DNA of 64,000 nucleotides, taken from NCBI GenBank assembly GCA_913062815.1, contig CAJXWZ010000008.1, positions 1 to 64,000 of the forward strand. The letters are read 5' to 3'. Shown one piece after another: positions 43,890-63,409 of this stretch (its first letter is position 1; every line of letters starts with the position of its first letter). The notes beneath the pieces were generated by a model, which was not told where the DNA came from, ran no database searches, and saw only the letters and a list, made by a program, of their open reading frames with translations. The stretch is from an uncultured Colwellia sp. Lineage in GTDB: Bacteria; Pseudomonadota; Gammaproteobacteria; Enterobacterales; Alteromonadaceae. The position numbers and the translations under genes are program-made.

Positions 43890-45761
43890 TTAATTTGAAT
43901 ATCTAAGTCCATTGATTAAAGGTTGGATATGTTTCTCATATTTTCTCCAAGCCTCTGAACTCCCTTGGTACATTTTTTTTCTAACTTGCCCTGCGCTTGC
44001 TGTTTTAACTTCTCGTTTTGTATTATGGAAATTCAGACATTCGTCCTGCCATTCTAGATCACAGAACTCTAATAGTTTTCGAGTTTCTTCATATTGATTT
44101 ACTGTTAACTCTTCGTAATTTTGGTCGTAAATCCTGCCTGGAAAGTGTTTATGCCAATAACGCATCAAATCAATATATAACACATAAAATTCAGTAAGAT
44201 CGTTCATATCATATGCGAAGCCATTTCCATTAACTGAAAAATAATGCTTATAAATAGACCAACATGTTGCTCTAGCATCTCTTGATGTGTGAATTATTTT
44301 TACTTCAGGGAACGCAGATAGAATGAACCCTATCCAAATAAAATTAAGTGGCATCTTATCTGTAATGAGCATTTCGGGAACTTTCAATTGATTCAAACTC
44401 TCAATATATGAATCGCGTAATTCACTTATTTTACCCTGAATTTCTTTACAGCTTGCTTGCTTGAGAGTTTGTTCAGAAAAAATCGACAAAATTGGACTTG
44501 CTAATTTACTCATTGTTGAAAGTTCACCTGCACCGTAGACCTTAGAATGAGTCGCAATAATTTGTTCTACGAGTGAAGTTCCTGAACGGGGCATACCTAA
44601 TATAAAAATAGGTTGCTTCACTTTTTTATTTTCTAACACTAAATTGGGCGCTAAACTCCCATTGCTAAATATTGATTTTATCCGTTCGATTAATCTTCTA
44701 TCATTATCTATATTGTATTTCAGTTCTCCTTTACGAAGTTGATTACCTAATTGAAGAAAGTCAAAACTCTGATCTACATGACCTAATCCGTCGTAAGCTT
44801 TTGCCAAACTATAAGCAATTAACTTACGTTCAGAGTCATTTAGCTTTCCTTCAATTAATAGTTTTTCCATTGTTCGTATTTGAGGATCATTTGCTTTATA
44901 TTTTTTCAAAGTACTTAGATTACGATGCGCTTCTGCATAGTCTGGTTTCAGTTTAATTGCTTTCTCATAACATTCCTGTGCTTTGTCTGACTTTCCTAAT
45001 CCCTTTAATGCACCACCAAGGTTACAATAAGCTTCAGCATAATCAGGTTTACATTTAACTGCTTTTTCAAAGGTAGCTACAGCATTTTCAAACAAGCCAA
45101 GTTCAATAAATACCACTCCTAAATTACTATATGCTTGAGCAAAGTTAGGATTTAATAATGTAGATTTTTCAAAACTATCAACGGCCTTTTCTAACAGCCC
45201 AAGCGTAATAAATGTATTACCAAGTAAGTAATAAGCCTCTGCATAATCAGGCTTAAGCTGGATTACAATCTCAAAATCTTTCAAAGCTCTTTTTGACAAT
45301 CCAAGTTTACTTAATATAATACCCCGGTTGTAGTAAGCGTTTATATAATCAGGCTTTATCTGAATTACTATGTCATAACATTTCATAGCTTCTTGTTGCT
45401 TTCCTTGTTTTTGAAGCACACTACCTAATATATTTAAAACCACTAATGATTTAGGGTGAGATTGCAATAAAGCTGCACAAATTTGTTCTGCTTTTATCAA
45501 GTGACCAGAGCTATATAAATTAACTAATCCATTGATTTGATCTTGAGTAGGATCAACGGCTACTTTCAACTCAGACCGTTCTGTTGAAAGTTTTTGCATT
45601 TTTCGCAACCCTTTAGTCGCGATAGGGTGATTAGGGTTATTTTTCAACACTGCCCTATAAAGTTCTATAGCAACTTCTGTCTTTTTTTCTTTACCTGCCT
45701 TTTTTGCTCGAGATAAAGCTTGTTTCATCGTTAATGTTTGAGATTGAAACTTATCTTTCAT
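43890..45761 (-). CDS. TPR-repeat sulfotransferase
   Basis: The 623-residue protein has about eight tetratricopeptide repeats (residues 10-300; for example INAYYNRGIILSKLGLSKRALKDFE and AEAYYLLGNTFITLGLLEKAVDSFE) followed by a sulfotransferase domain with the 5'-phosphosulfate loop FILGMPRSGTSLVEQI (about 391-406) and the 3'-phosphate region IHTSRDARATCWSIYKHYF. Bacterial TPR-sulfotransferases use PAPS; acceptors are mostly unknown, with peptides or glycans proposed. No signal peptide. It forms the boundary to the accessory island. Confidence 0.88.
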   Translation of the reverse strand: MKDKFQSQTLTMKQALSRAKKAGKEKKTEVAIELYRAVLKNNPNHPIATKGLRKMQKLSTERSELKVAVDPTQDQINGLVNLYSSGHLIKAEQICAALLQSHPKSLVVLNILGSVLQKQGKQQEAMKCYDIVIQIKPDYINAYYNRGIILSKLGLSKRALKDFEIVIQLKPDYAEAYYLLGNTFITLGLLEKAVDSFEKSTLLNPNFAQAYSNLGVVFIELGLFENAVATFEKAVKCKPDYAEAYCNLGGALKGLGKSDKAQECYEKAIKLKPDYAEAHRNLSTLKKYKANDPQIRTMEKLLIEGKLNDSERKLIAYSLAKAYDGLGHVDQSFDFLQLGNQLRKGELKYNIDNDRRLIERIKSIFSNGSLAPNLVLENKKVKQPIFILGMPRSGTSLVEQIIATHSKVYGAGELSTMSKLASPILSIFSEQTLKQASCKEIQGKISELRDSYIESLNQLKVPEMLITDKMPLNFIWIGFILSAFPEVKIIHTSRDARATCWSIYKHYFSVNGNGFAYDMNDLTEFYVLYIDLMRYWHKHFPGRIYDQNYEELTVNQYEETRKLLEFCDLEWQDECLNFHNTKREVKTASAGQVRKKMYQGSSEAWRKYEKHIQPLINGLRYSN

Positions 45762-47706: not shown

Positions 47707-48923
<1,217 letters not shown>

Positions 48924-49792: not shown

Positions 49793-50206
49793 TTAATTAT
49801 CTTTCTTATTTTTTAATATCGAAGAAGTAATTAAGACTAATGGTATGTTCAAACTTAGCACCCTCCATGAGTTCAGTATCAGGTACTCATACCCAAAATC
49901 TTCCTTATTTATAAAAATACAAACTAAATAAAAAAGAATTGAAATCAGTACAGGTAAGCTCGCGTACATTAAAAGTTCAATGAACTTATTACCAAAATCA
50001 GGCATTAATCTTCTACTAAAAGTCGCGACTATCAACAAAGAAACACCTGAAACAATCGCGACCATAACCCAATTGTAAAAATAAGGTCCAACACTCTTAC
50101 TTGAACTAATCATAGATAAAAATAACATTGCAGCAACGATAAACATTACACCTAAATAGCCTACTTTTCTTCTTAATGTAATATTTTGAGAAAATGTAAA
50201 AATCAT
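49793..50206 (-). CDS. Four-segment membrane protein coupled to the orphan Rhs tip (candidate immunity protein)
   Basis: About 137 residues from the ATG at 50206, which comes one base after the TAG stop of the orphan Rhs tip (an upstream in-frame ATG at 50221 overlaps it). Four hydrophobic segments (about 20-38, 48-66, 82-103 and 118-133). Position and coupling are those of an immunity gene in Rhs and other polymorphic-toxin loci; the sequence itself is not recognised. Confidence 0.6.
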   Translation of the reverse strand: MIFTFSQNITLRRKVGYLGVMFIVAAMLFLSMISSSKSVGPYFYNWVMVAIVSGVSLLIVATFSRRLMPDFGNKFIELLMYASLPVLISILFYLVCIFINKEDFGYEYLILNSWRVLSLNIPLVLITSSILKNKKDN

Positions 50207-50207
50207 A

Positions 50208-50795
50208 CTATTCACACCCACAGCTAGTTATACTTGATTTTGTTACTGTTGATACACCTGCTCCAGCAGCAACGGATAAATCCCAACCCCTTTGATAACC
50301 ACCACCAATGGCTTCAGCATCTCCTATTTGTAGCCACTGATATCCAACACCTGTAAATGACATTGCCCATGATGCATAACCATATCTAGCTTCTCCAGCG
50401 AAAACAGAAGGATCAACCTGAGATTTTCCATCATTAAAAGTTACATCTCGACTGTATGTGAATGACATAGGAATTCCTAAGGTCAACATTGTTCCACCCG
50501 CGACTACTTCTATATTAGCTTTATTTCCATTTTCATCACAATCAGACTCTAATGTGAACTTAAATCTTACAGCTCCACCACCTTCGCCTGCTGCGGTAGT
50601 TGTTTGAGTTCCTCTCCATGCTAGTAAACCTATTGGGTCAACAAAATTGATAGGATTACCTAATACATACCCATACGTATTAATCCCACCCGCTAAACCA
50701 ATCGGATCTGACTGAATGTACCTCCCCAATTCAGGATCGTAATCTCGAAAGTAGTTGTAAACTAATTTAGCTTCTAGGTGAGATTGTCCATGCAT
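50208..50795 (-). CDS. Orphan Rhs C-terminal tip: core cap fragment plus CGC-ending variable domain
   Basis: The 195-residue reading starts inside the Rhs cap: residues about 14-58 ([19 protein letters not shown] through [10 protein letters not shown] and VDPIGL) are nearly identical to the cap of the main Rhs protein at 55470-59456. Residues about 59-195 are a Gly-rich, beta-looking variable domain with SDC near its start and ending SCGCE. It has no secretion signal or shell of its own. Orphan tips of this kind are known stores of alternative toxin domains next to rhs genes. Toxicity is inference. Confidence 0.8.
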
Positions 50796-51533: not shown

Positions 51534-52853
51534 CTACAAGAATGTCCTTAAATTTCGGTTTATTTCTTTTATAAGTGAATTGGGTACTTCTTGCTCTGAT
51601 GCAAATTTTTCCCACTGGGATACAGCTTCAATAGTTTGATTTAAAACTTCATCAATATTTCGCTTGCTGAAGATAGGGCTTAGCTTTTCAAAACTATAGA
51701 AGTCATCTCTTGTGAAGTTATCTTGTTTTCCATTTAGTGTCATCCAATGTTTGCTAACCCAATGACTATCAGGTTTGTAGCTATAAGCTAGATCGTAAGC
51801 AGGAGCTAATTGCCATTTATTTTCTTTATCTAATAAAAATCCAAAATTCTTGGCGTGATCGTCATGATTTCGAGAGATTACATTAAAGACCATCCGTCTA
51901 AATAGCTGCATGGCATCAATTTGGCTAAGGTTTAGCTTTCTTGCTGTGCTAAATAGCTCAGCATAAGAGTACGAACCTATTTGCTTGTAGCTTATATGCT
52001 CTAGCCCGTTCAGGGTTTGTACGTGTATTTTTTCATTACCATTACGATCAAATCTCTCGGTAATGAAATGTCTTCTATTCCCTTCATTAAGTAAATGACA
52101 TGGCATCATATCAATACCGCACTCTTTAGCTAATAAGTGGTATGTATATTCCATCGCGCCATACCCCATAGGGTCGCCAAAAGTCTCCTGATTTTGGTTA
52201 TGTTCACTAACACCATCAAATTTCATAAGATAGTGAGTAAAGCCAGTTGGCGCATCGGTTTGGCCTGAGCGTACTTGGGTGAAATCTTTATTGAAGGCAA
52301 GAACAGCTTTTGGTCTTGCTCCACCTGCACTCATACCAACTGACATTAGAGACATCATTGCTTCTTTGTCTTCTTCCCCATTATTAGTCAGGTTCACGCT
52401 AAACTGTGCACGTTTATCTAATACCTCTTGGGCGATAGAAATAAGGGATTCAATGTGTATTGGCTGAGAAGCATTAAGGTTTTTTCTTTTTGTAGCTGGA
52501 GAATATGTTAAGGCTCCCATACCGCGCATGCCAGTATACTGCAATCGTTGTAATGGCGTGATATCGCTTGTTGATTTACCTTGGCTGGCTATCCATGCAT
52601 TCATTACAGCATTACCAAAATCATCGGGTAATGAATCAGCTATTAGCCCAGGTAGCCCCTTGAAAGTCGCGTGATCTATGTGGGGGAATGAGTAAATCTT
52701 TTTTGCTAGGGGCATTTTGATTGGCGATAATTCAATACCAGTTTTAATAAAACTAGGAAAATATTCAAATGCCCCCATTTGAGTCTCCGTGTTGTAACTA
52801 ACAGCACCTACGTCGTATTCTTTGTACTTAACCCTTATTACTTCGGTTACCAT
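51534..52853 (-). CDS. hipA: HipA-family serine/threonine kinase toxin
   Basis: Toxin of a type II toxin-antitoxin system; in E. coli HipA phosphorylates glutamyl-tRNA synthetase and induces persistence. The 439-residue protein has the HipA N-terminal domain (VGAVSYNTETQMGAFEY, LPDDFGNAVMNAW), the Gly-rich loop SAGGARPKAVLAF, the catalytic SRNHDDHAKNFGFL (about 317) and the metal-binding LAPAYDLAYSY. It starts inside the last codons of hipB (7-base overlap), so the two are coupled. Confidence 0.95.
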   Translation of the reverse strand: MVTEVIRVKYKEYDVGAVSYNTETQMGAFEYFPSFIKTGIELSPIKMPLAKKIYSFPHIDHATFKGLPGLIADSLPDDFGNAVMNAWIASQGKSTSDITPLQRLQYTGMRGMGALTYSPATKRKNLNASQPIHIESLISIAQEVLDKRAQFSVNLTNNGEEDKEAMMSLMSVGMSAGGARPKAVLAFNKDFTQVRSGQTDAPTGFTHYLMKFDGVSEHNQNQETFGDPMGYGAMEYTYHLLAKECGIDMMPCHLLNEGNRRHFITERFDRNGNEKIHVQTLNGLEHISYKQIGSYSYAELFSTARKLNLSQIDAMQLFRRMVFNVISRNHDDHAKNFGFLLDKENKWQLAPAYDLAYSYKPDSHWVSKHWMTLNGKQDNFTRDDFYSFEKLSPIFSKRNIDEVLNQTIEAVSQWEKFASEQEVPNSLIKEINRNLRTFL

Positions 52854-53182
52854 TTAGGCGTGTCCTTACTTTGAGTGGTATTTTTAATAGAGCTAGATGC
52901 TCTTTTTCGTTCATTTCCTTTCAACTCAATTAATTGCAAGGGAGATATTTCTTGTTTTGGTATAAAGAAATTCAACTGCTCTGTTATTTCAAGCGCTATT
53001 AGAATGGCTATCATGGATTCAAGCGTTGATTTCCCTTTTTCGCCATTTGTCACAGCTTTGAGAGATACTCCCGCTTTTTTAGCTAATGCTTTTTGGGTGA
53101 GGTTAGCATTGAGCCGTGCGGTTTTAATTCGATCGCCAAGTTCGTTTGCAATAGCATGAGGTGTTAATTGTTCAAAACCCAT
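52847..53182 (-). CDS. hipB: HipB-like antitoxin and autorepressor
   Basis: About 111 residues from the ATG at 53182 behind GGGGGGA; the ORF extends 15 residues upstream without a better start. A Cro/CI helix-turn-helix lies at about 15-60 (RLNANLTQKALAKKAGVSLKAV). The C-terminal tail is basic and Ser-rich (KRASSSIKNTTQSKDTPKW). It probably binds and inhibits the adjacent HipA and represses the operon. Confidence 0.9.
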   Translation of the reverse strand: MGFEQLTPHAIANELGDRIKTARLNANLTQKALAKKAGVSLKAVTNGEKGKSTLESMIAILIALEITEQLNFFIPKQEISPLQLIELKGNERKRASSSIKNTTQSKDTPKW

Positions 53183-53200
53183 AATCCCCCCTAAAGGATA
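53183..53200. promoter_or_regulatory. Candidate HipB operator overlapping the hipB ribosome-binding site
   Basis: AATCC-N8-GGATA at 53183-53200 is one base from the E. coli HipB operator consensus TATCC-N8-GGATA and has exactly the same spacing. It begins one base before the hipB start codon and includes its Shine-Dalgarno, so binding would also hide the initiation region in DNA terms. Confidence 0.65.
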
Positions 53201-53280
53201 GCTTGTATTGGTTATACGCCAGTACAACCCTTTTAAGGAGTATTACATGAAGCAAACAATCAGTCAACAAAGGGTAAGTT

Positions 53281-53420: not shown

Positions 53421-53680
53421 TTAATCTTTTCTAGCAAAAGGATGTGTTCGCCCATGCACTTGTTGTAAATCTTTAATAACAATATGAGTATATCTCTGTG
53501 TTGTATTTAGATCTTCATGACCTAGCATCTCTTGCACATAACGAATATCAGCGCCATTGCGTAACATATGTGTCCCAGTGGCATGTCTAAGTAAGTGGCA
53601 TGCCCCCACAGTTGCAACACCAGATCTACGCACATAATCGTATATGTTTTTGGGGTCTAAGCATTTACACTCACCTTTGG
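53421..53680 (-). pseudogene. C-terminal remnant of a tyrosine recombinase
   Basis: The open frame from about 53680 reads DPKNIYDYVRRSG and then HLLRHATGTHMLRNGADIRYV, QEMLGHEDLNTTQRYTHI and VHGRTHPFARKD. The catalytic box R (HLLRH), the second His/Trp-position (LGHEDLNTTQ) and the nucleophile Tyr (YTH) are present, but the N-terminal DNA-binding half and box I Arg are missing. The upstream bases belong to the end of the neighbouring 330-residue gene. It is not an integron IntI (no extra domain signature). Confidence 0.85.
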
Positions 53681-54649
53681 GTCATAACCTTCAGGTGGTT
53701 CTTCAAAAATATCACATGCCTCAAAAAAGAAAGACATAACAGCAATCACATTTCTTTCATAATCGCGCCTCTGCATATTAGATAAATTAACAGGCAACAT
53801 TTCATCAACCATACTTTTAAAAACTATATCGGACTCGGATAAACCCGTTATTACCGAAGCTTCCACATTGTCAGCTTTTAAATGGTGTAAATACATCCTA
53901 TTCAATGAATCTCTAGATTGCTGGCGAGAAAACTTACTGTTGGTTCGAAAGTAGTCATCAACATAACCTACTTGATATGCCCCTAAATTAAGGTGCCTCG
54001 CAGTGTTTTCACCCAACTCATTAAAGTGTATCTTGTTGTAAAAATCAGGCGGTTCATTGGTTTGAGTGTCGGAAAAACCACTGTAGTTCGTAGATACGTA
54101 ACCTACAATCTCAGCAATGATTGAATTATCAATAAACCCAATATCTTCTGGCTTTGGATAATACCCACATATTGCTGCGATATTATCTTCTGGTAATTCC
54201 ATGAAAATGTCTTCTAATTCAGAAGAAAGAAATACATCGCAAACTTCCAGATTGTACTTACTCTTAACACTACTTAGTGTTGTGTATATTTCTGGATAAG
54301 CACCATGATATTTATCATTAAATACAAAATAAAAATGTTTAATTTCATAGTTATGTTTATTACCCCAATATGCAATTAGACCGTCTAAGTCGCCTTCAAG
54401 TTTTGAAGTGGCAGAAGTCGGATTGCCAGTCGGAGATTGAGGGGCATAAACTTGATAATATTTTCCTTCAGATTGGATGAATCCATCATTTTTTCTATCA
54501 CCAATACGCCCTTGTGGTTTAACTTTTTTAAAGTCCTTGTTTGATGCACGCATCACATCGCAAAATAAATCTTCGAATGCATTTCCATTTGACTCATGGA
54601 TACGCAGTTTAAAGGCTTTACGTACATCTAATTTTTGTTGTACATCCAT
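53657..54649 (-). CDS. PD-(D/E)XK-like defence-associated protein (ABC-three-component-type candidate)
   Basis: About 330 residues from the ATG at 54649 (GGGAA upstream; an in-frame TTG is two codons earlier). The N-terminal third has E..LFCDVMRA, then GRIGDRKNDGF and KYYQVYAP, a nuclease-fold pattern (Glu, then Asp, then a strand with Gln replacing the usual Glu/Lys pair) that I associate with effector proteins of ABC-three-component systems. The C-terminal half is unassigned (helical, ending in MSFFFEACDIFEE). No ABC ATPase or middle component is next to it, so it is either solitary or a survivor of a larger system. The 3' end runs into the recombinase remnant. Confidence 0.55.
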   Translation of the reverse strand: MDVQQKLDVRKAFKLRIHESNGNAFEDLFCDVMRASNKDFKKVKPQGRIGDRKNDGFIQSEGKYYQVYAPQSPTGNPTSATSKLEGDLDGLIAYWGNKHNYEIKHFYFVFNDKYHGAYPEIYTTLSSVKSKYNLEVCDVFLSSELEDIFMELPEDNIAAICGYYPKPEDIGFIDNSIIAEIVGYVSTNYSGFSDTQTNEPPDFYNKIHFNELGENTARHLNLGAYQVGYVDDYFRTNSKFSRQQSRDSLNRMYLHHLKADNVEASVITGLSESDIVFKSMVDEMLPVNLSNMQRRDYERNVIAVMSFFFEACDIFEEPPEGYDPKVSVNA

Positions 54650-54692
54650 TAGCAATTCCCTATGAATTCTTCCTCATTTTGACTCTATATTT

Positions 54693-55182: not shown

Positions 55183-55467
55183 TTATCCCAGTCGATCATA
55201 AAAGCCATGAAATAAAAAGCCGACACTTGCCCAGAATGAAATAGCTTGTATTGTTAATACGATTCTAATCTTATTATTTGAAAGAGACAGGAACCTAAAT
55301 AAGCCAACATACCCAACTATATAAGATACTTTGTTTACATCAGTCCAATAATGAACTGGCGACCCTAACGAGTCGTGTTCCTTAGGGTATTTTTTTCTAA
55401 GCATACGTATTCCAATGCCATCACTAATTAACATAATAACTATTAATACAAAAAACCAATTACTCAT
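55183..55467 (-). CDS. Small membrane protein directly after the Rhs tip (candidate immunity protein)
   Basis: The 94-residue protein begins two bases after the stop of the 1328-residue Rhs protein. It has hydrophobic segments at about 3-16 and 68-90 with a polar centre (KKYPKEHDSLGSPVHYWTD). Not recognised. Its position and coupling match immunity genes of Rhs/CDI systems. It has no obvious similarity to the candidate partner of the orphan tip, as expected for matched toxin-immunity pairs that diverge. Confidence 0.6.
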   Translation of the reverse strand: MSNWFFVLIVIMLISDGIGIRMLRKKYPKEHDSLGSPVHYWTDVNKVSYIVGYVGLFRFLSLSNNKIRIVLTIQAISFWASVGFLFHGFYDRLG

Positions 55468-55469
55468 GT

Positions 55470-58400
55470 TTATTTCTCACATCCACAATTTGATTCGTAA
55501 GCATCTGCAACCGAAGCTTCGCCTAAGGTAAAGTCTGACCAACTAGCATCTACGCCAACTACTACACCTCTAGAAACACTGTAAGCTTGCCCTATTTGCA
55601 CTGTTGAAATGCTATAGCCTAATAAAGCAGCGACAGTTACACCAGAAGAACTAAAGTCACCTATCAAGTTTATAGGTTTCGCTGTCGGGTAAGGGTCATG
55701 AAGTTCAATTTTTGATGCGGTAATAGACCATGGTAATCCTCCTGTAGCCCCTCCAGCCTTAAAGTTAACTTGAACATTCCAACGCTTTCCGCCATTACAA
55801 TCCGATGTTAAAACTGCACGCCCGGCTGTTCCACCAACAAGTGCCCCACCAGAAAACATTTCAATTCTGCCAGTCCATCTTGCTAGACCAAGAGGATCTG
55901 TATACGTTAATGGATTGCCACCAACATACCCATACGTATTAATCCCACCTGCCAGTCCAATAGGATCGGATTGAATATAGCGTCCCAATTCAGGATCGTA
56001 ATCCCTAAAGTAGTTGTAATGTAAGCCAGATTCTTGGTCGTAATATTGTCCAGGAAAACGGATATTATTAGTAACAGCTTCAACCACTATATCAGCTTCA
56101 CCAAAGGGGGTGTAATTCGCTTGCCAAACAACAGCAGCACTAATATCAGTCATTACCTGTGGAGTGCCTAAATGGTCATTATGATAATAGTATGTGCCAG
56201 CCGCTGTCTCTGGTGATTTAACAGCAACCACTACCGCGCGCTCAACGGTATAGTTACCATCTCTAACCGCTAGCTTGAAGCTATACACTTTATTCTTTGT
56301 ATTACTTGGTGCGGTAAAGGCTAAAATATCAGTATTTGTTGCTGCTAAGGTGATTGTTTCGCCACTTACTTGCTGCCAAGTATAAGTGAGTGGGTCGTTA
56401 TCACTATCTGTAGCTGTTAACATTACTGATACTGCATCACCCCCTGTAACCAATACTTCTTTTGATTCATCAACTACTGGTGCTTGATTGTATTCAGAAA
56501 ATGGCATAATCACGACATTAAGTTTATCAGACGCGGATATATCGTTTACATCTGTCACAGTAAAAACAAATGACATCAATTCATCATTTTGAACGTCCGA
56601 AACAGTAAAGCTAGCAGTTGAGGATGTTGCATTATTTAATGTCACTTGGCTACCTAGATACTGCTCCCAAGCATAGTTTGTAATAGTAACATTACTACTA
56701 CCTGTTCCTGACAGCTCAGTTTCAACAGTTCCATAACCTATGGTATCAAAGCCTGCGTCAGCAGTTACCGTTGATACTTCACTTGCTCTAGCAAAGCCAT
56801 AATCAACTATTGGAGAGTTGCCAGAATCGCTATTATCATAGATACTTTGGGCAATAGCTGTAGTGTCAACTACTCCCCAGAAATTCCCCTTCGCATTAAG
56901 TATTCGACTATTCGCATTACCAAAAAACTCAGCATAGTAGTTATAGTTAACGTTGTTTTGAATCACATTATTAGTAACAATAGGCGTAGGATGATTAGCT
57001 AGTGATTGCCAAGCAGCACTGACATGAATACCCGTGTTATTATTTTCAATATTACTATTTGTCACCCTACCTGAGGCTTTAATACCGTTAAAGAAAACCC
57101 CTTTATCAGCATATTCAATCACAGCATTTGAGATGTGAACATTGGTATTACTTTGCACTTCAATGCCACTCCAATCTCCCGCTGATTTAGTCGACTTTCC
57201 TGAAGTAAAGATAATAGGGTTGCTTTCTTCACCAATCACAGAAAAGTTGGCACCACCTTCAACGACTAGCTTGGATCCAGCCAAAAATTCAAGCTGGCTG
57301 CCTGACTCAACAATAACACTGGCACCTGATTTTATTAAAATATCACCTAACACGACACCGTCATTAAATTGCCAACGATGTTCACCAACTAAACTACCTA
57401 AGATATGAGTACCGGGTAATGGATTTCCATTTTCGCTAGTTAATAGACCGCTAAAATCTATAAGAGGTTTATAAGAGCCATCTTGTAAATCAAAAATCGA
57501 AACCCGAACTTGCGCAATATCCGAGCTTCCCCACCAATTACCTGTAGCATCAATATTCGTTATAGTGCTGCCATAAAACATTTTGGTGTAATAGTTATAT
57601 TGCACGTTGTCATGCAAGGCACCATCGGTGAACGTGATGATGGGATGGTTAGGTGCTGCGTTGTATACGGCATCCACATAAACACCATAGTTATTATGCC
57701 TAACAATAGAGTTGGTCACAGTGACCTTTACACCTGCTTTATTGGTATAAAGTGCTTTGTCTGCATACTCGATAATCGCGTTATCAATGACAATATCGTT
57801 ACCATCAACACGAGAGCCTTCAAAGCGTAAGCCTTTCCAGCTATTCACAACACCATTACTGCTTGTGAACAAAACAGGTGCCGCTTCTGTACCTTGTATG
57901 AGTAATTTACCACCGCTATCAATAATTAATTCTGAGCCAGTAACAGCATCTAGTTGTGTGCCTGCGGCGATTGTTAACGTATTGCCATTGGTCACATGGA
58001 TTGGTTGCGTTAATATGCCATCCGTTGCACTCCACGTAGTATCTTCAGTGATATAACTGGTAAAACTTGTGCCTATCGCAACACTATTTAACGCATCTAA
58101 ATAACCCGAGAAATTAATGGATGCGGTATTACTTGCATCAACTCTGTCATAAATGGTTGTTGCAATATCTTGTGGTTGATTTGTGCCCCACCAGTTACCT
58201 GTCGCATCTATCGTTGTGATAGTGCTGCCATAAAACATCTTGGTGTAATAGTTATATTGCACGTTGTCATGCAGAGCACCATCGGTGAACGTGATGATGG
58301 GCTGGTTAGGTGCTGCGTTGTATACGGCATCCACATAAACACCATAGTTATTATGCCTAACAATAGAGTTGGTCACAGTGACCTTTACACCTGCTTTATT

Positions 58401-59456
58401 GGTATAAAGTGCTTTGTCTGCATACTCGATAATCGCGTTATCAATGACAATATCGTTACCATCAACACGAGAGCCTTCAAAGCGTAAGCCTTTCCAGCTA
58501 TTCACAACACCATTACTGCTTGTGAACAAAACAGGTGCCGCTTCTGTACCTTGTATGAGTAATTTACCACCGCTATCAATAATTAATTCTGAGCCAGTAA
58601 CAGCATCTAGTTGTGTGCCTGCGGCGATTGTTAACGTATTGCCATTGGTCACATGGATTGGTTGCGTTAATATGCCATCCATTGCACTCCACGTAGTATC
58701 TTCAGTGATATAACTGGTAAAGCTTGTGCCTATCGCAATACCATTTAACGCATCTAAATAACCCGAGAAATTAATGGATGCGGTAGTACTTGCATCAACC
58801 CTGTCATAAATGGTTGTTGCAATATCTTGTGGTTGGTTAGTGCCCCACCAGTTACCTGTCGCATCAATCGTCGTTATAGTGCTGCCATAAAACATTTTGG
58901 TGTAATAGTTATATTGCACGTTGTCATGCAAGGCACCATCGGTGAACGTGATGATGGGATGGTTAGGTGCTGCGTTGTATACGGCATCAACATAAACACC
59001 GTAATTATTATGTCTCACAGTCGAGTTAGTTACGGTTACTTTTACACCAGGTTTGTTGGTATAAAGTGCTTTATCTGCATACTCGATAATCGCGTTATCA
59101 ATGACGATATCGTTACCATCAACACGAGTACCTTCAAAAGTTAAACCTGCCCAAGAAGCTGTCATTTGGCCATCAGAAGTAAAAGTTACTGGGTTTGCAT
59201 TGCTCCCTTGAACAAATAACTTACTTCCACTTTGAACTTGAATCTTATTCCCCGAACTAAAACGAAGAATAGCCCCTGCCTCTATCGTCAACGTAACACC
59301 AGAGGGAACAATTAAGTCTTCTGAATATGAATAATCCCCTACAATAATTGTAGTATCACCGGTTAAGGTCTCCGCTGTGACCATTTGACAAACAAAAAAG
59401 GATAATATGAAAAATGCCTTAAATGAACTAGTTATAATGCTACTTAATCGTTCCAT
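55470..59456 (-). CDS. Secreted beta-helix/Ig-like protein carrying the Rhs cap and CGC-ending C-terminal tip
   Basis: The 1328-residue protein has a Sec signal peptide (cleavage near MVTA-ET). Residues about 30-890 form four right-handed beta-helix modules of about 219 residues, the first three nearly identical ([41 protein letters not shown]). Two PKD/Ig-like modules follow (about 905-1085, [14 protein letters not shown] and [14 protein letters not shown]). Then comes the Rhs cap [16 protein letters not shown] ... [25 protein letters not shown] (about 1088-1192) and a variable tip of about 136 residues ending SNCGCEK. Start is supported by AGGAGA overlapping the upstream stop. The cap is the part missing from the gene before. 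Confidence 0.9.
57540..59190 (-). repeat. Three tandem 657-bp repeats inside the Rhs-cap gene
   Basis: Blocks at about 57540-58196, 58197-58853 and 58854-59190 (the last partial or more diverged) are nearly identical with a 657-base period (219 codons). For example TTCACAACACCATTACTGC occurs at about 57844 and 58501. The period is a multiple of three, so copy-number changes keep the frame. A fourth, diverged module lies at about 56800-57540. Confidence 0.92.
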
Positions 59457-59458
59457 GA

Positions 59459-62400
59459 TTATTCTCCTACCAGCATAACAAGCGGCTGACCTTCAAAATA
59501 CACATATTCTTTAATGGTACTTCCTGTGTCATCAGCTTCTGCGATAAGCAAACCTTGCTCATCATAAATAAAGTAGACTTCACCAAAGACATTCGATTTT
59601 TTAACACGCTGTCCTAAACCGTTATAGTGATATGTAGTTTTCACGCCACTTTCATCATTTATGACTTCAATTAAACGATTATGATCACCGTAACTATAAG
59701 TGCGTTTACTGTCTTTAGTTCGGTTACCGTTAGCGTCATGAAGGTAAGGGCTAGCAAGTTGATTACTCTCAGCGTTATAAGTAAGCGAGTTAGCAGTTGC
59801 ATTGTCTGTTTTGGTTATGCGATTACTAGTACTGTCATAACTATACCCAAGAGTACCATAAGCGCCTGTTGCTTCTGTTAAACGGTCAAGTTCGTCATAG
59901 GAAAAACCTTGGTTGGACGTTGGCGTAACCGTATTAGCAAGTCCGGTGATATTACTATCACTGTTATAAGTAAGTGATGATTGATAAACACCGCTAACAT
60001 CAATACTTGCTAACTGACCATTTAAGTTATGGGTTTTAGCGGTTGCTTTACCATTACCTAATGTTAAAGACTTGGCTAAGCCAAACGGCACATAGCTTGC
60101 GTTGATAAGTAGATTTTGAGTAACTCCACTTTTTAGCTCATTGATAGCAGTGATTTGTCCGTGGGTATCGCGAGCAAGGTTAACAACTCGGCCGCTAGGC
60201 TGTGTAATTTGGGTCAGTTGCCCCACACCATTGTAGCCATAGCTTACGGTAAAGTTTTTACCTGATACCATTGAGCTTTTACTGCTTACTTGGCCAAGTG
60301 CATTATAGCTGTAGGTTGTAGCGCCACTGCCATCGGTTATTTGTGACAAACGTCCTTTGCCATGAGTACCGGTATCATAAATCAATGTGACATCTAAGGC
60401 ATCAGTTGGATAATCAATGCCTGTTAAGCGGTTGAGTGCATCATAACTGTAGTGAATAGTAGCGTTTTTAGCATCCGTTTTACTTAACTGGTTACCTGCA
60501 ACATCATAGGTAAAAGACGTTGTGCCCGTATCAGGACTCGTTTGGGAGAGCAAGTTACCAAAGCCATCATAACTGTAACTTGTTTGAGCATTATTAGGTG
60601 CATTTACCGAGGTTAAGTTATTCGCTGCATCATAGCCGTATGTAATCTTACCCTCCTTTGCATCAGTAGTTTCACTTAAGCGATTGAGTGCATCATAAAC
60701 TTGCTTCGCCTCTTTGAGTAATGGTGTTTTAACGCTGACTTGATTGCCTACAGCGTCATAACCAAAAATAGTGGTTTGGTTTAACCCATTAATTTGTGAG
60801 GTTAAGCGGTTCAACCCATCAAAAACCTGCTGCTGCGTTGCATACAAAGTATCTGCAGGGTCTTTAACGTCAATGTTAGTGACATTACCCATGACATCAT
60901 AGGTGTAATTGACGCTATTTCCTTGCCCATCTGACATTGTTGTTAATAAACGTGCACCACTGTATTCATAATTAGTGACTGCGCCTGATGGTAATGTGAT
61001 TTTAGTGAGTTGGCCAATATTGTCATATTCAAAACTAGTAATATTACCTGCTACTGTTTGGCTGACTAAACGATTTCGCACATCATAAACTAAGGTAGTA
61101 GTAACATTATTCGCATCAACTATTGTTGTTGGGTGACCATGTGCATCAAAACTGGTTATTTGAGTAACATTACCAACACCATCGGTGATACTGATTAAAT
61201 CATGTGACGTGTTATAAGAGAATGAGGTCGTATCTGTTACATCGGTGCGAGCACCATTAATACTCTGCAATAGCCCTGTTGCATTATAAGAATGGGTTGT
61301 AACACGTGCTGAATTTTCGGCAATCACCAAATCAGTTTCGGTAATACTTTCAAGCCTGCCCCGAACGCCATAAACATAATCTATTTTCAGCGTTGGTGTA
61401 GTCACTTTAGTTGGCAAAGATAAATCAGCATGCCATTCGGTTGTGGTCACTCGTGCTAGTGTTGTACCGTAAGCTTCAGTGCGTTTAGTTTGCAATCCGC
61501 GTGTATTGTATTCATAACGCGTTTCAATGCCATTAAAGTCAGTTTTTGAGGTCAGTTGATTAGTTGAATCATAAGCGTAACTTGCAATATCGCTATTACT
61601 ACACTGCCCACAATTGCCACCCGATACAGAGGTTAATCGCCCTTTATCATCAAACGTTAAGGTACGTGCTTGACCATTGGCTTCGGTAACAGAAACATCA
61701 TTGTCGTTATAAGAGATAGTAGTTTGTTTATAGCCACCGAAGTTAACACTACTGGTAGCGCGACCATCGGTACTATAACTCCAATTTGCATAAGGAAAGC
61801 TATTTGCATCTATAAGGCTTGTTAATGCATAGGGGTTATTAGTGTCAGTATAATGATATTGTGTAAAAGTATTATCCGTTGTATCTTCTGGAGTATTATC
61901 AGGATAGACAGCTTTAACTAGATTGCCGTTATTACCATACTCGTAGGTGGTAATATGAGCGTCTGGATCGGTTAACGAAGATAGGCGGCTCTCACTGTCA
62001 TAGTCTAAAGTTAATTGACGACCTGCGGGATCAGCTATGATAACTAATAAATCATTGGCATCATAAGATAAGGTTTGTTCTATGCCCTGATTATTAGCAA
62101 TTGAAGTAAGCTGTCCTTCACTATTATAAGTTTCAACATTACCTTGTGGATCGGTATAGAGCCAGTTATTACCTGATTTAACAACTTTATCACCTGTTAA
62201 ATAATCAGGCGTATAAGTGACAGTATCAGCACTAACACTGTAGTAAAACTTATCACCATTAGCCCTAATCAACACAACTTTAGATGCATCAGGGTAAACA
62301 ACTAAAGATAATTGATAACTGTGCATCCATTGCTTAAAACCTGTAGGAGCAATTACCCCTAAGTCACTAGTATTCACCCAATTGGAAACAGCAACTCCGG

Positions 62401-63409
62401 CATAGTCATCAGGTTGCACGTAGCGTGTCCATATTGTCGTGCCATCACTTTTCTGTGCGGGGGGACGAGTTACTTCGGGCGCACGAAAACTTTTATAGTT
62501 ACGAGAAAATTTTATTGGAAAGGAGCCACTGCCATTATAGTCTGGTAATTGTGGCTGTATTTTTTCGCCTGTTTCAGTATTAATTGGATTACCTGCATTT
62601 GCAGCACACATATCAACAGGGCGCCCCTTACAAACACCTAATATCTTATCTAACGTAGATGCGCCTGGCGGGCAGTATTTAACACACCCTAACGATGACT
62701 CTTCCCATTCATAAGGGGCTTTGCATTCAGTAATAAAAACTCGATCCCAATATGATACATTTTTACAGGATACATCGGCATTTTCACCCAAACCTGAATT
62801 GGAAAGAGGGGAGTGTTGAGTATCCTTACACTCAAATGATTCGTTTTTTGTGATTCTGAGACTATCGTTGTAATTCTTTACTAAACACCCCCATGCAACG
62901 GGTTCATGTTTATATGGTTGAGATATAGAAGCGGATATATCTTTATTAAATGATCTAACTAAAGCACTTCCATTAGAGGTTCCAAAGGCACTTCCTTGAT
63001 AAATCACCCAATCATCAAATTCCCAGTCACCATAAGTAACTTCACCAGTAATAACACCACAATCAGTTGTGTTTGAATAATCACCTATATTAAATTGATC
63101 TGACCAGTTACTTATTGCATCACTTTCAGAATATACATAGCCACTCGTATTATATCCTGTATATCGCGTAAAAATGGCCGTTTGTAAAGCTTCATGGTAA
63201 TGTATATACCAAAGCAAAGAAGAAGTAGTTGTTTGCTCCTCATCACGGACAATCCAGCCGTTTTGCCCATATTCAGAAATAATAGCTTGTTCCGCATCCG
63301 CTAAATCAAGATAGGTTGTATCTTTATAACGGTAAATGGTTTGGGTTTCTGCTGCAATAGAGACAGTAATATAGTAGAAAAAGTAGAAAAGCAATAATGA
63401 TATGCGCAT
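59459..63409 (-). CDS. Secreted Rhs/YD-repeat protein lacking the terminal cap
   Basis: The 1316-residue protein has a signal peptide ([21 protein letters not shown]) and a Cys-rich N-terminal region (about 100-270, unassigned). A DUF6531-type segment [13 protein letters not shown] follows at about 270-285, then a long series of YD repeats ([41 protein letters not shown]) to the end. It stops after [18 protein letters not shown], exactly where full Rhs proteins continue into [11 protein letters not shown]. That continuation is encoded by the next gene, two bases downstream. YD repeats form a closed shell around a toxin in Tc/Rhs proteins. Secretion is through Sec at least to the periplasm; no VgrG or PAAR domain is seen. 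Confidence 0.92.

What the first reader, a model, noticed from the sequence alone, without database searches (positions are those of the whole stretch)
55470..63409. Rhs protein divided between two secreted polypeptides, with a beta-helix module spliced in before the cap
The 1316-residue YD-repeat protein stops after EGQPLVML, and the sequence that normally follows without a break ([12 protein letters not shown] and the cap) is at the C-terminus of the next gene, behind its own signal peptide, four beta-helix modules and two Ig-like modules. The second gene has its own Shine-Dalgarno and signal sequence, so this is not a single frameshift. It implies that the Rhs shell could be closed in trans by a second protein that also presents the variable tip, an assembly I do not know from described Rhs systems.
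Basis: partly seen in the sequence, partly recalled or inferred. Interest (0 to 1): 0.85.

Follow-up and report, generated by a model that had tools for sequence, protein, structure and literature searches.

The report
Rhs toxin shell with separate cap
In this marine bacterium the container and the lid-plus-toxin of an Rhs toxin appear to be made as two separately exported proteins, and the same division recurs in related bacteria, which suggests that one container could be armed with interchangeable toxin lids.

Summary
Observation confirmed. ORF1 (63409..59459, -; signal peptide, DUF6531, YD shell) stops after [19 protein letters not shown]2 starts 2 nt later with AGGAG inside ORF1's last codons and its own signal peptide; it carries beta-helix modules, Ig/PKD, the RHS cap with both DPxGL motifs and a variable tip; a small membrane protein follows. 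Placed on solved Rhs chains, ORF1's end and ORF2's cap abut.

It is not a one-off. G384, of another family, has the same gene pair overlapping by ATGA, with a different tip (its ORF2 is interrupted); G013 keeps a decayed copy. In a distant cap clade I found 21 signal-peptide-plus-cap ORFs in 14 genomes (10 genera, 5 families); 12 directly follow a long YD shell gene that ends its shell at the same strand and shows no cap. The cap tree needs five fused/separate changes, at least three forced.

Best reading: an Rhs cocoon assembled in trans from an exported shell and an exported cap-toxin; here the cap also carries a stalk. TcB/TcC is the precedent for a two-chain shell, split elsewhere. Ten literature searches gave no description.

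The parts
59459..63409 (-). ORF1, 1316 aa: capless Rhs shell (signal peptide, cysteine-rich N-region, DUF6531, YD repeats)
   Evidence: homologue in G384 57% identical
62489..62593 (-). DUF6531 (PF20148) of ORF1, residues 273-307
   Evidence: E 3.9e-7
59462..59509 (-). last shell strand [16 protein letters not shown], the break point (residues 1301-1316)
   Evidence: falls just before the cap on 8h8a and 7q97 (last 23-27 residues by extrapolation)
59464..59468 (-). Shine-Dalgarno AGGAG of ORF2, inside the end of ORF1, 7 nt before the ATG
   Evidence: read
55470..59456 (-). ORF2, 1328 aa: stalk, cap and tip
59373..59456 (-). signal peptide of ORF2, residues 1-28 (...CQMVTA|E)
   Evidence: own reading, no SignalP
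56787..59372 (-). beta-helix modules: three near-identical (300-nt cores 58843-59142, 58186-58485, 57529-57828) and one divergent
   Evidence: homology to a PF13229 protein
56202..56774 (-). two Ig/PKD-like modules, residues 895-1085
   Evidence: PF22352, PF17963
55884..56198 (-). RHS cap (PF03527/TIGR03696), residues 1087-1191, with DPIGL (1164) and [10 protein letters not shown] (DPLGL at 1187) autoprotease motifs
55473..55883 (-). variable tip, 137 aa, ending SNCGCEK
   Evidence: 106/137 identical to the tip of the single-chain Rhs of G052, 103/137 to an orphan tail in G249
55183..55467 (-). 94-aa hydrophobic (membrane) protein, probable immunity protein
   Evidence: 57/94 identical to the protein after the same tip in G052, 61/94 in G249; membrane nature by own reading
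50208..50795 (-). displaced cap fragment plus related tip (36/135 identical), no signal peptide seen
   Evidence: 165-nt stretch 74% identical to the cap region of ORF2
49793..50221 (-). 142-aa hydrophobic ORF overlapping the displaced tail, probable immunity protein
   Evidence: inference from position and hydrophobicity

Best explanation
ORF1 and ORF2 are the two subunits of one secreted polymorphic toxin. Both are probably made from one transcript, with ORF2 translated from a start signal inside the end of ORF1, and each is exported by Sec on its own signal peptide. ORF1 folds as the Rhs/YD cocoon closed at its N-terminal side but lacking the last spiral. The RHS cap of ORF2 docks by continuing the spiral after the strand [16 protein letters not shown], seals the shell and places the tip inside; the beta-helix and PKD stalk stays outside as a spacer or binding arm. 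The DPIGL/DPLGL aspartyl autoprotease of the cap frees the tip, and the 94-aa membrane protein protects the producer. Having cap and toxin on their own gene lets whole cap-toxin genes be exchanged against a constant shell. Shown here: the two intact genes, signal peptides by sequence, complementarity of shell and cap on solved Rhs chains, recurrence in G384, the class of signal-peptide caps behind shells without a detectable cap, and the tip and its neighbour shared with a single-chain Rhs. Inferred: cotranscription, export, docking in trans, autocleavage, a membrane-active tip, delivery to neighbours.
For: Two intact adjacent genes with two signal peptides. ORF1 end and ORF2 cap abut on 8h8a and 7q97. 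Same pair in G384, another family, ATGA overlap, other tip, hydrophobic ORF after it; ORF1 57% and ORF2 53% amino-acid identity with synonymous sites saturated (pS 0.82 and 0.81, pN 0.29 and 0.33); the last 100-codon window of ORF1 (77 of 100 identical) and the ORF2 window with most of the cap (76 of 100) are the best conserved of 13 and 8 windows. 21 signal-peptide-plus-cap ORFs in 14 genomes, 12 of them -4 to +52 nt behind a long YD shell ORF; 13 of 13 upstream YD ORFs examined (12 long, one fragment) show no cap hit at E below 0.1 with hmmsearch --max, and 13 of 13 end their shell at the same strand (9 by motif, 4 by reading). Tree of 103 caps: fused versus separate needs 5 changes, at least 3 forced by well supported branches. 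G494: caps at three loci without a shell are 75-81% identical to the cap next to a shell, with other tips. Same tip and neighbour on the single-chain Rhs of G052.
Against: No structure of the pair could be predicted and no experiment shows binding. In 3 of the 4 genomes of this cap group something is damaged or missing: in G013 the shell part of ORF1 is gone and the ORF2-like gene has lost its signal peptide; G040 has an apparently membrane-anchored cap with no shell gene in the 14 kb read; in G384 ORF2 is interrupted by a frame change inside identical repeats. So the window holds the only undamaged pair of this exact type that I found. The cap is the best conserved part of Rhs proteins in general (recalled), so its conservation here is weak evidence for docking. 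Shell and cap would have to meet after export, which I know from no described Rhs protein (recalled). Scans 8, 9 and 22 scored two candidates a genome, so rarer copies may be missed.
Confidence: 0.72

Rival explanations
1. ORF2 works alone: a beta-helix surface adhesin that acquired a toxin by recombination with an Rhs tail; the cap serves only as a self-cleaving linker, and ORF1 is an unrelated or leftover shell.
For: Beta-helix genes exist near ordinary Rhs genes (5 of 41 loci), so a fusion by recombination is conceivable; a displaced tail is present in the window; G013 keeps an ORF2-like gene without a shell.
Against: ORF1 is open and constrained in two families, lacks the part ORF2 supplies, and stays next to ORF2 in G384; signal-peptide caps without any stalk also follow shells without a detectable cap. 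In the solved Rhs protein RhsA the cap region spirals into the shell (PMC8765631, passages).
Confidence: 0.17
2. Decay: an ancestral single-chain Rhs gene was broken by insertion of a beta-helix gene and both halves are drifting.
For: Rhs loci accumulate displaced tips (PMC2935791, passages); G384 and G013 copies carry damage.
Against: Both window ORFs are open over 1300 codons with pN/pS of 0.36 and 0.41 against G384, on saturated synonymous sites; the second gene has its own SD and signal peptide; caps of this type occur in two families.
Confidence: 0.07
3. The ribosome shifts frame so that a fused ORF1-ORF2 protein is also made and is the active form.
For: Stop and start lie 2 nt apart, and overlap in G384.
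Against: A fusion would place a signal peptide in the middle of the shell; I saw no slippery heptamer by eye in the junction; in the other class gaps reach 52 nt.
Confidence: 0.04

Closest known systems
TcB/TcC of Tc (ABC) insecticidal toxins
   Same: Two polypeptides together form one Rhs cocoon; the second carries the RHS core autoprotease and the variable toxin (PMC8765631, PMC11435725, passages).
   Different: Here the second chain brings only about 105 residues of Rhs; Pfam finds no SpvB in ORF1; both chains have a signal peptide (PMC3482391, passage, lists one for TcdB/TcaC-like leaders; nothing I read gives the C chain its own); the cap chain carries a beta-helix/PKD stalk. That one TcB can work with several TcC paralogues is recalled and comes from no call.
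Single-chain T6SS Rhs effectors (RhsA, Rhs1, RhsP)
   Same: YD shell, RHS cap, PxxxxDPxGL cleavage motif, tip, immunity gene; 8h8a and 7q97 are among the best solved matches of both ORFs (that they are RhsP and RhsA is recalled).
   Different: Those are one chain with PAAR-type N-termini; here signal peptides and the cap on another protein.
Sec-exported RHS polymorphic toxins with adhesion modules (PMC3482391, passages)
   Same: Signal peptide plus RHS repeats; RicinB and other lectin domains embedded among the repeats or near the toxin.
   Different: The passages describe no separately exported cap.
Bacterial teneurin-like proteins (PMC13018210, passages)
   Same: YD-shell polymorphic toxins, many with signal peptides, with adhesion domains and downstream immunity genes.
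   Different: Single chain with NHL and FN-plug; no NHL family found by Pfam in ORF1.
Rhs C-terminal displacement arrays (PMC2935791, passages)
   Same: Dissociated tips downstream, as at 50208-50795.
   Different: Displaced tips are described as shunted to a silent position; here the cap gene has its own start, SD and signal peptide.

Membership tests
Rhs/YD polymorphic toxins | YD/RHS repeats forming a shell | tested here: met
   PF05593 18 stretches, 2.4e-91; (sequence level; shell fold not modelled)
Rhs/YD polymorphic toxins | RHS-associated core (cap) with PxxxxDPxGL | tested here: met
   on ORF2:
Rhs/YD polymorphic toxins | variable C-terminal tip exchanged between proteins | tested here: met
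   same tip on the single-chain Rhs of G052, other tips in G384 and G013
Rhs/YD polymorphic toxins | adjacent immunity gene | tested here: inconclusive
   homologous small hydrophobic protein follows the same tip in 3 of 3 genomes with this tip that I read (window, G052, G249); protection not tested
T6SS Rhs effectors | PAAR/prePAAR or VgrG-linked N-terminus | tested here: not met
   Pfam on ORF1 shows none; T6SS VipB genes exist in the genome on another contig
Tc toxin BC component | two chains forming one Rhs cocoon | tested here: inconclusive
   sequence complementarity only
Tc toxin BC component | SpvB and beta-propeller N-terminal part in the first chain | tested here: not met
   absent from ORF1
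Tc toxin BC component | TcA partner | not tested
   no search for TcA was run in the genome
Bacterial teneurin-like proteins | FN-plug and NHL propeller before the YD shell | tested here: not met
   no NHL family in ORF1; FN-plug not searched for separately

The most novel reading that the evidence does not exclude
In this order of marine bacteria there is a general class of trans-capped Rhs toxins: a constant exported shell is closed after export by any of several separately exported cap-toxins, some encoded far from the shell gene, so that one shell is armed combinatorially; the window's system is the version in which the cap also brings a beta-helix stalk, so the same part both loads the toxin and positions the particle.
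Probability: 0.4. Interest if true: 0.88.

Novelty: new variant of a known kind. Interest (0 to 1): 0.76.

Why it matters
Outside the Tc toxins, the Rhs shells in the papers I looked into are single chains that hold their toxin. A shell closed by a second exported protein would mean that loading can happen outside the cytoplasm, that toxin and container can be tuned separately, and that tip exchange can work by swapping a whole small gene rather than by recombination inside a conserved core. It offers a two-protein system in which loading and closure could be reconstituted, and a parallel to the TcB/TcC division. Database names such as RHS repeat-associated core domain-containing protein hide the class.

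Tried and rejected
Beta-helix relatives outside the order: one search returned 41 loci; 5 (L095, L098, L099, L100, L101) have a YD/Rhs gene in the stretch fetched, but as a separate gene beside the beta-helix (with its own cap in L095, L098, L099 and L100; cut by the contig end in L101), so the shell/cap split was not seen there. A scan of 369 genomes of the class gave, besides the window's genome, 4 genomes with partial beta-helix matches; the short stretches fetched around them hold no cap and no YD match. In viral contigs the beta-helix query found no relative, and in phage records and plasmids no place covered 80% of ORF2.

Counts are not frequencies: the 46 loci and the 20 were picked because the open frame around the cap was short, the sequence before it odd, or the match began in the signal-peptide columns; the match lists were cut by the tool, and searches scored two candidates a genome. 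The 28 loci gave 21 signal-peptide caps without stalk plus the G040 anchor-type cap. Signal peptides were called by a hydropathy rule and by eye; the rule gave 2 false positives (L206, L174), removed before the tree. Rows labelled edge (9) and other (51) of 165 were also left out of the tree. The tree has 113 columns for 103 rows, and the group of the ORF2 type with G040 has only moderate support (86/82).

I first took the second class for SpvB-type shells; Pfam finds no SpvB in 5 of 5 shells scanned (L180, L281, L148, L184, L293), so I dropped that name.

G249 could not be read fully (contig edge), and L283 has only a YD fragment upstream. Insertions at the break point inside single chains are rare: L021 and L046 among the 79 fused ORFs, by distance and my reading, besides the RICIN-like insert of L022 and the golvesin-like insert of L026 (both domain names from memory).

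A Colwellia literature query gave one paper, irrelevant by its listing. Ten paper searches gave no description of separately exported caps in what I saw; the library holds only openly licensed PMC papers. I saw passages of PMC8765631, PMC13018210, PMC2935791, PMC7861908, PMC3482391, PMC8636562 and PMC11435725; all other papers only in search listings.
Full report
What is there. ORF1 (63409..59459, minus strand, 1316 aa) starts with a signal peptide ([21 protein letters not shown], my reading), has a cysteine-rich N-terminal region, DUF6531 and 18 RHS-repeat stretches, and stops after [16 protein letters not shown]. Two bases later ORF2 (59456..55470, 1328 aa) starts in another frame; its AGGAG lies in the last codons of ORF1. 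ORF2 has its own signal peptide, three near-identical beta-helix units of 219 residues (657 nt; 96% and 91% identical over 300 nt), a fourth divergent unit, Ig/PKD modules, the RHS cap and a 137-residue tip, and is followed after 2 nt by a 94-aa hydrophobic protein. The cap has both aspartyl-protease motifs, DPIGL at 1164 and DPLGL at 1187, the latter in the form PxxxxDPxGL.

The two pieces are complementary. On the solved Rhs chain 8h8a, ORF1 is aligned up to residue 1022-1023 with 27 residues to spare and the ORF2 cap takes over at 1049; on 7q97 the numbers are 1156, 23 and 1185. Single-chain relatives read straight across this point, for example EYIYLNGQRLAMRIDDQLYYVHTNHLDAPLALTD in G145. 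In RhsA the C-terminal aspartyl protease region seals one end of the cocoon, and the conserved C-terminal region spirals into its inside (PMC8765631, passages).

It recurs. Among 295 genomes of the family (two candidates a genome scored, E up to 1e-20), ORF2 as query finds caps in many genomes, but beta-helix and cap together only in the window's genome and in G013. Among 394 genomes of the order, the beta-helix/Ig part finds G384, a one-contig genome of another family, with extended homology; the only other match besides the window is G621, to the Ig/PKD part. G384 has ORF1 ending ...[17 protein letters not shown], overlapping the ORF2 start as ATGA, and ORF2 with the same parts, a different tip and another small hydrophobic ORF; its ORF2 is interrupted by a frame change within identical repeats. 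ORF1 is 57% and ORF2 53% identical between the two genomes, with saturated synonymous sites and pN 0.29 and 0.33; the last 100-codon window of ORF1 and the ORF2 window with most of the cap are the most conserved, 77 and 76 of 100. In G013 the shell part of ORF1 and the start of ORF2 are gone. G040 carries a cap of the same group on a 341-aa protein with an apparent N-terminal membrane anchor and no shell gene in the 14 kb read.

A second class. Examining small cap-bearing frames, I met proteins in which a signal peptide is directly followed by the cap: G080, G174 (same genus as the window), G158 and G091. A profile of these over 340 genomes of the order, followed by reading 20 loci, raised this to 21 ORFs in 14 genomes: G080, G174, G158, G091, G385, G352, G323, G297, G494, G538, G546, G456, G530, G555 (10 genera, 5 families by the tool's codes). 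Twelve lie -4 to +52 nt behind a long YD shell ORF, one behind a YD fragment, three behind fragments with PKD-type or shell-end sequence, one behind another cap gene, and four have no YD ORF beside them (starts chosen by rule). The 13 upstream YD ORFs show no cap hit at E below 0.1 with hmmsearch --max. All 13 end their shell at the same strand, such as HIYLGKQLIAKINNG or DYVYLAGKQIAKV (9 by motif, 4 by reading). More sequence then follows; of five shells scanned by Pfam four show Ig-like, FN3-like or cadherin-like modules there (fn3 itself only below Pfam's cut-off, in L180) and one (L293) none. So the same cut occurs in two topologies: extra modules at the end of the shell protein (this class) or at the start of the cap protein (the window). 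A named example is plasmid pAMDE1 of Alteromonas mediterranea DE1 (NC_019394.1): WP_015068659.1 is a signal peptide plus cap plus tip, overlapping by ATGA the gene of WP_041703910.1, which has NYIYIGNKLIAKN followed by a further module; the shell seems to be spread over two ORFs there.

Tree. In a tree of 103 caps (78 fused, 22 secreted including G040, 3 of the ORF2 type) the ORF2 type plus G040 group together (86/82) in the half that also holds the single-chain Rhs of G052 and G145, while the other 21 secreted caps lie in the other half (branches 100/99). The fused label needs 5 changes, at least 3 forced by well supported branches; shuffled labels need about 23. The separation therefore happened, or was reversed, more than once.

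One shell, several caps. In G494 the cap next to a shell (L284) is 84/104, 83/104 and 80/106 identical to caps at three other loci and 52/101 to the cap beside another shell (L285), while the tips align at only 36/128, 34/113, 25/72 and 25/89 (no chance control was run). No ORF with three or more YD motifs lies within about 9.5 kb upstream and 13-14 kb downstream of those three. In L284, L286 and L293 further cap genes follow in tandem. This suggests that whole cap-toxin genes are the exchangeable unit.

Tip and immunity. The window's tip is 106/137 identical to the tip of a single-chain Rhs in G052 and 103/137 to an orphan tail at a contig edge in G249, each followed by a homologue of the 94-aa protein (57/94, 61/94). 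The cassette thus occurs on both architectures. That the tip attacks membranes is an inference from the hydrophobic partner. A related displaced tail lies at 50208-50795.

Beta-helix partners. Of 41 beta-helix loci from named genomes, five have an Rhs gene in the stretch fetched. In L098, L100 and L101 the order is beta-helix, a short gene, another gene, then Rhs; Pfam names for L098 are Beta_helix plus FlgD_ig, PD40 propeller, FlgD_ig, Rhs. A beta-helix protein thus accompanies Rhs genes elsewhere, which fits the stalk of ORF2 as a former separate partner. This is an inference.

Limits. No complex was modelled, since structure prediction was busy and then switched off. Signal peptides and membrane segments were judged by sequence only. 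Counts come from selected loci. The TcA partner was not searched for. The genome has T6SS VipB genes on another contig, but ORF1 shows no T6SS-type N-terminal family in Pfam.

Verdict. I file it as a new variant of the Rhs polymorphic toxins that would work like the TcB/TcC pair in having a two-chain shell, but is not shown to be one. Ten literature searches gave no description in what I saw.

Noticed in passing
window 55473-55493 and 50211-50231; also L016, L017, L020, L022, L030, L031, L070, L086, L173: Tips end in a C-x-C motif, mostly CGC, near the very C-terminus: 10 of 126 distinct cap-bearing frames against 0 of 272 other long frames (three of the ten, the window, L016 and L017, share one tip family; the motif was noticed before it was counted; the tail at 50208 is not in the count). 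It may form a disulfide with the shell side, as reported for a teneurin-like protein (PMC13018210, passage).
   Followed up: partly
L098, L100, L101: Recurrent gene order: beta-helix protein, a short gene, another gene, then an Rhs gene; in L098 Pfam names the two middle genes PD40 propeller and FlgD_ig.
   Followed up: partly
window 51534-53227: HipA and HTH gene pair between the Rhs pair and its displaced tail; HipA/HTH genes are also annotated near Rhs genes on the Paraglaciecola mesophila plasmid NZ_CP047657.1.
   Followed up: no
window 53657-54655: Protein with CTD10 of ABC-three-component systems, a possible defence gene, next to the Rhs locus.
   Followed up: no
window 47707-48444: Integrase-core (rve) protein just beyond the displaced tail.
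   Followed up: no
L144 (G029:C18): Open frame of 21,788 residues according to the tool, with a golvesin-like insert (name from memory) before an Rhs cap; the part I read contains long runs of X, so the length is not to be trusted.
   Followed up: no
window 43890-45761: TPR plus sulfotransferase protein.
   Followed up: no
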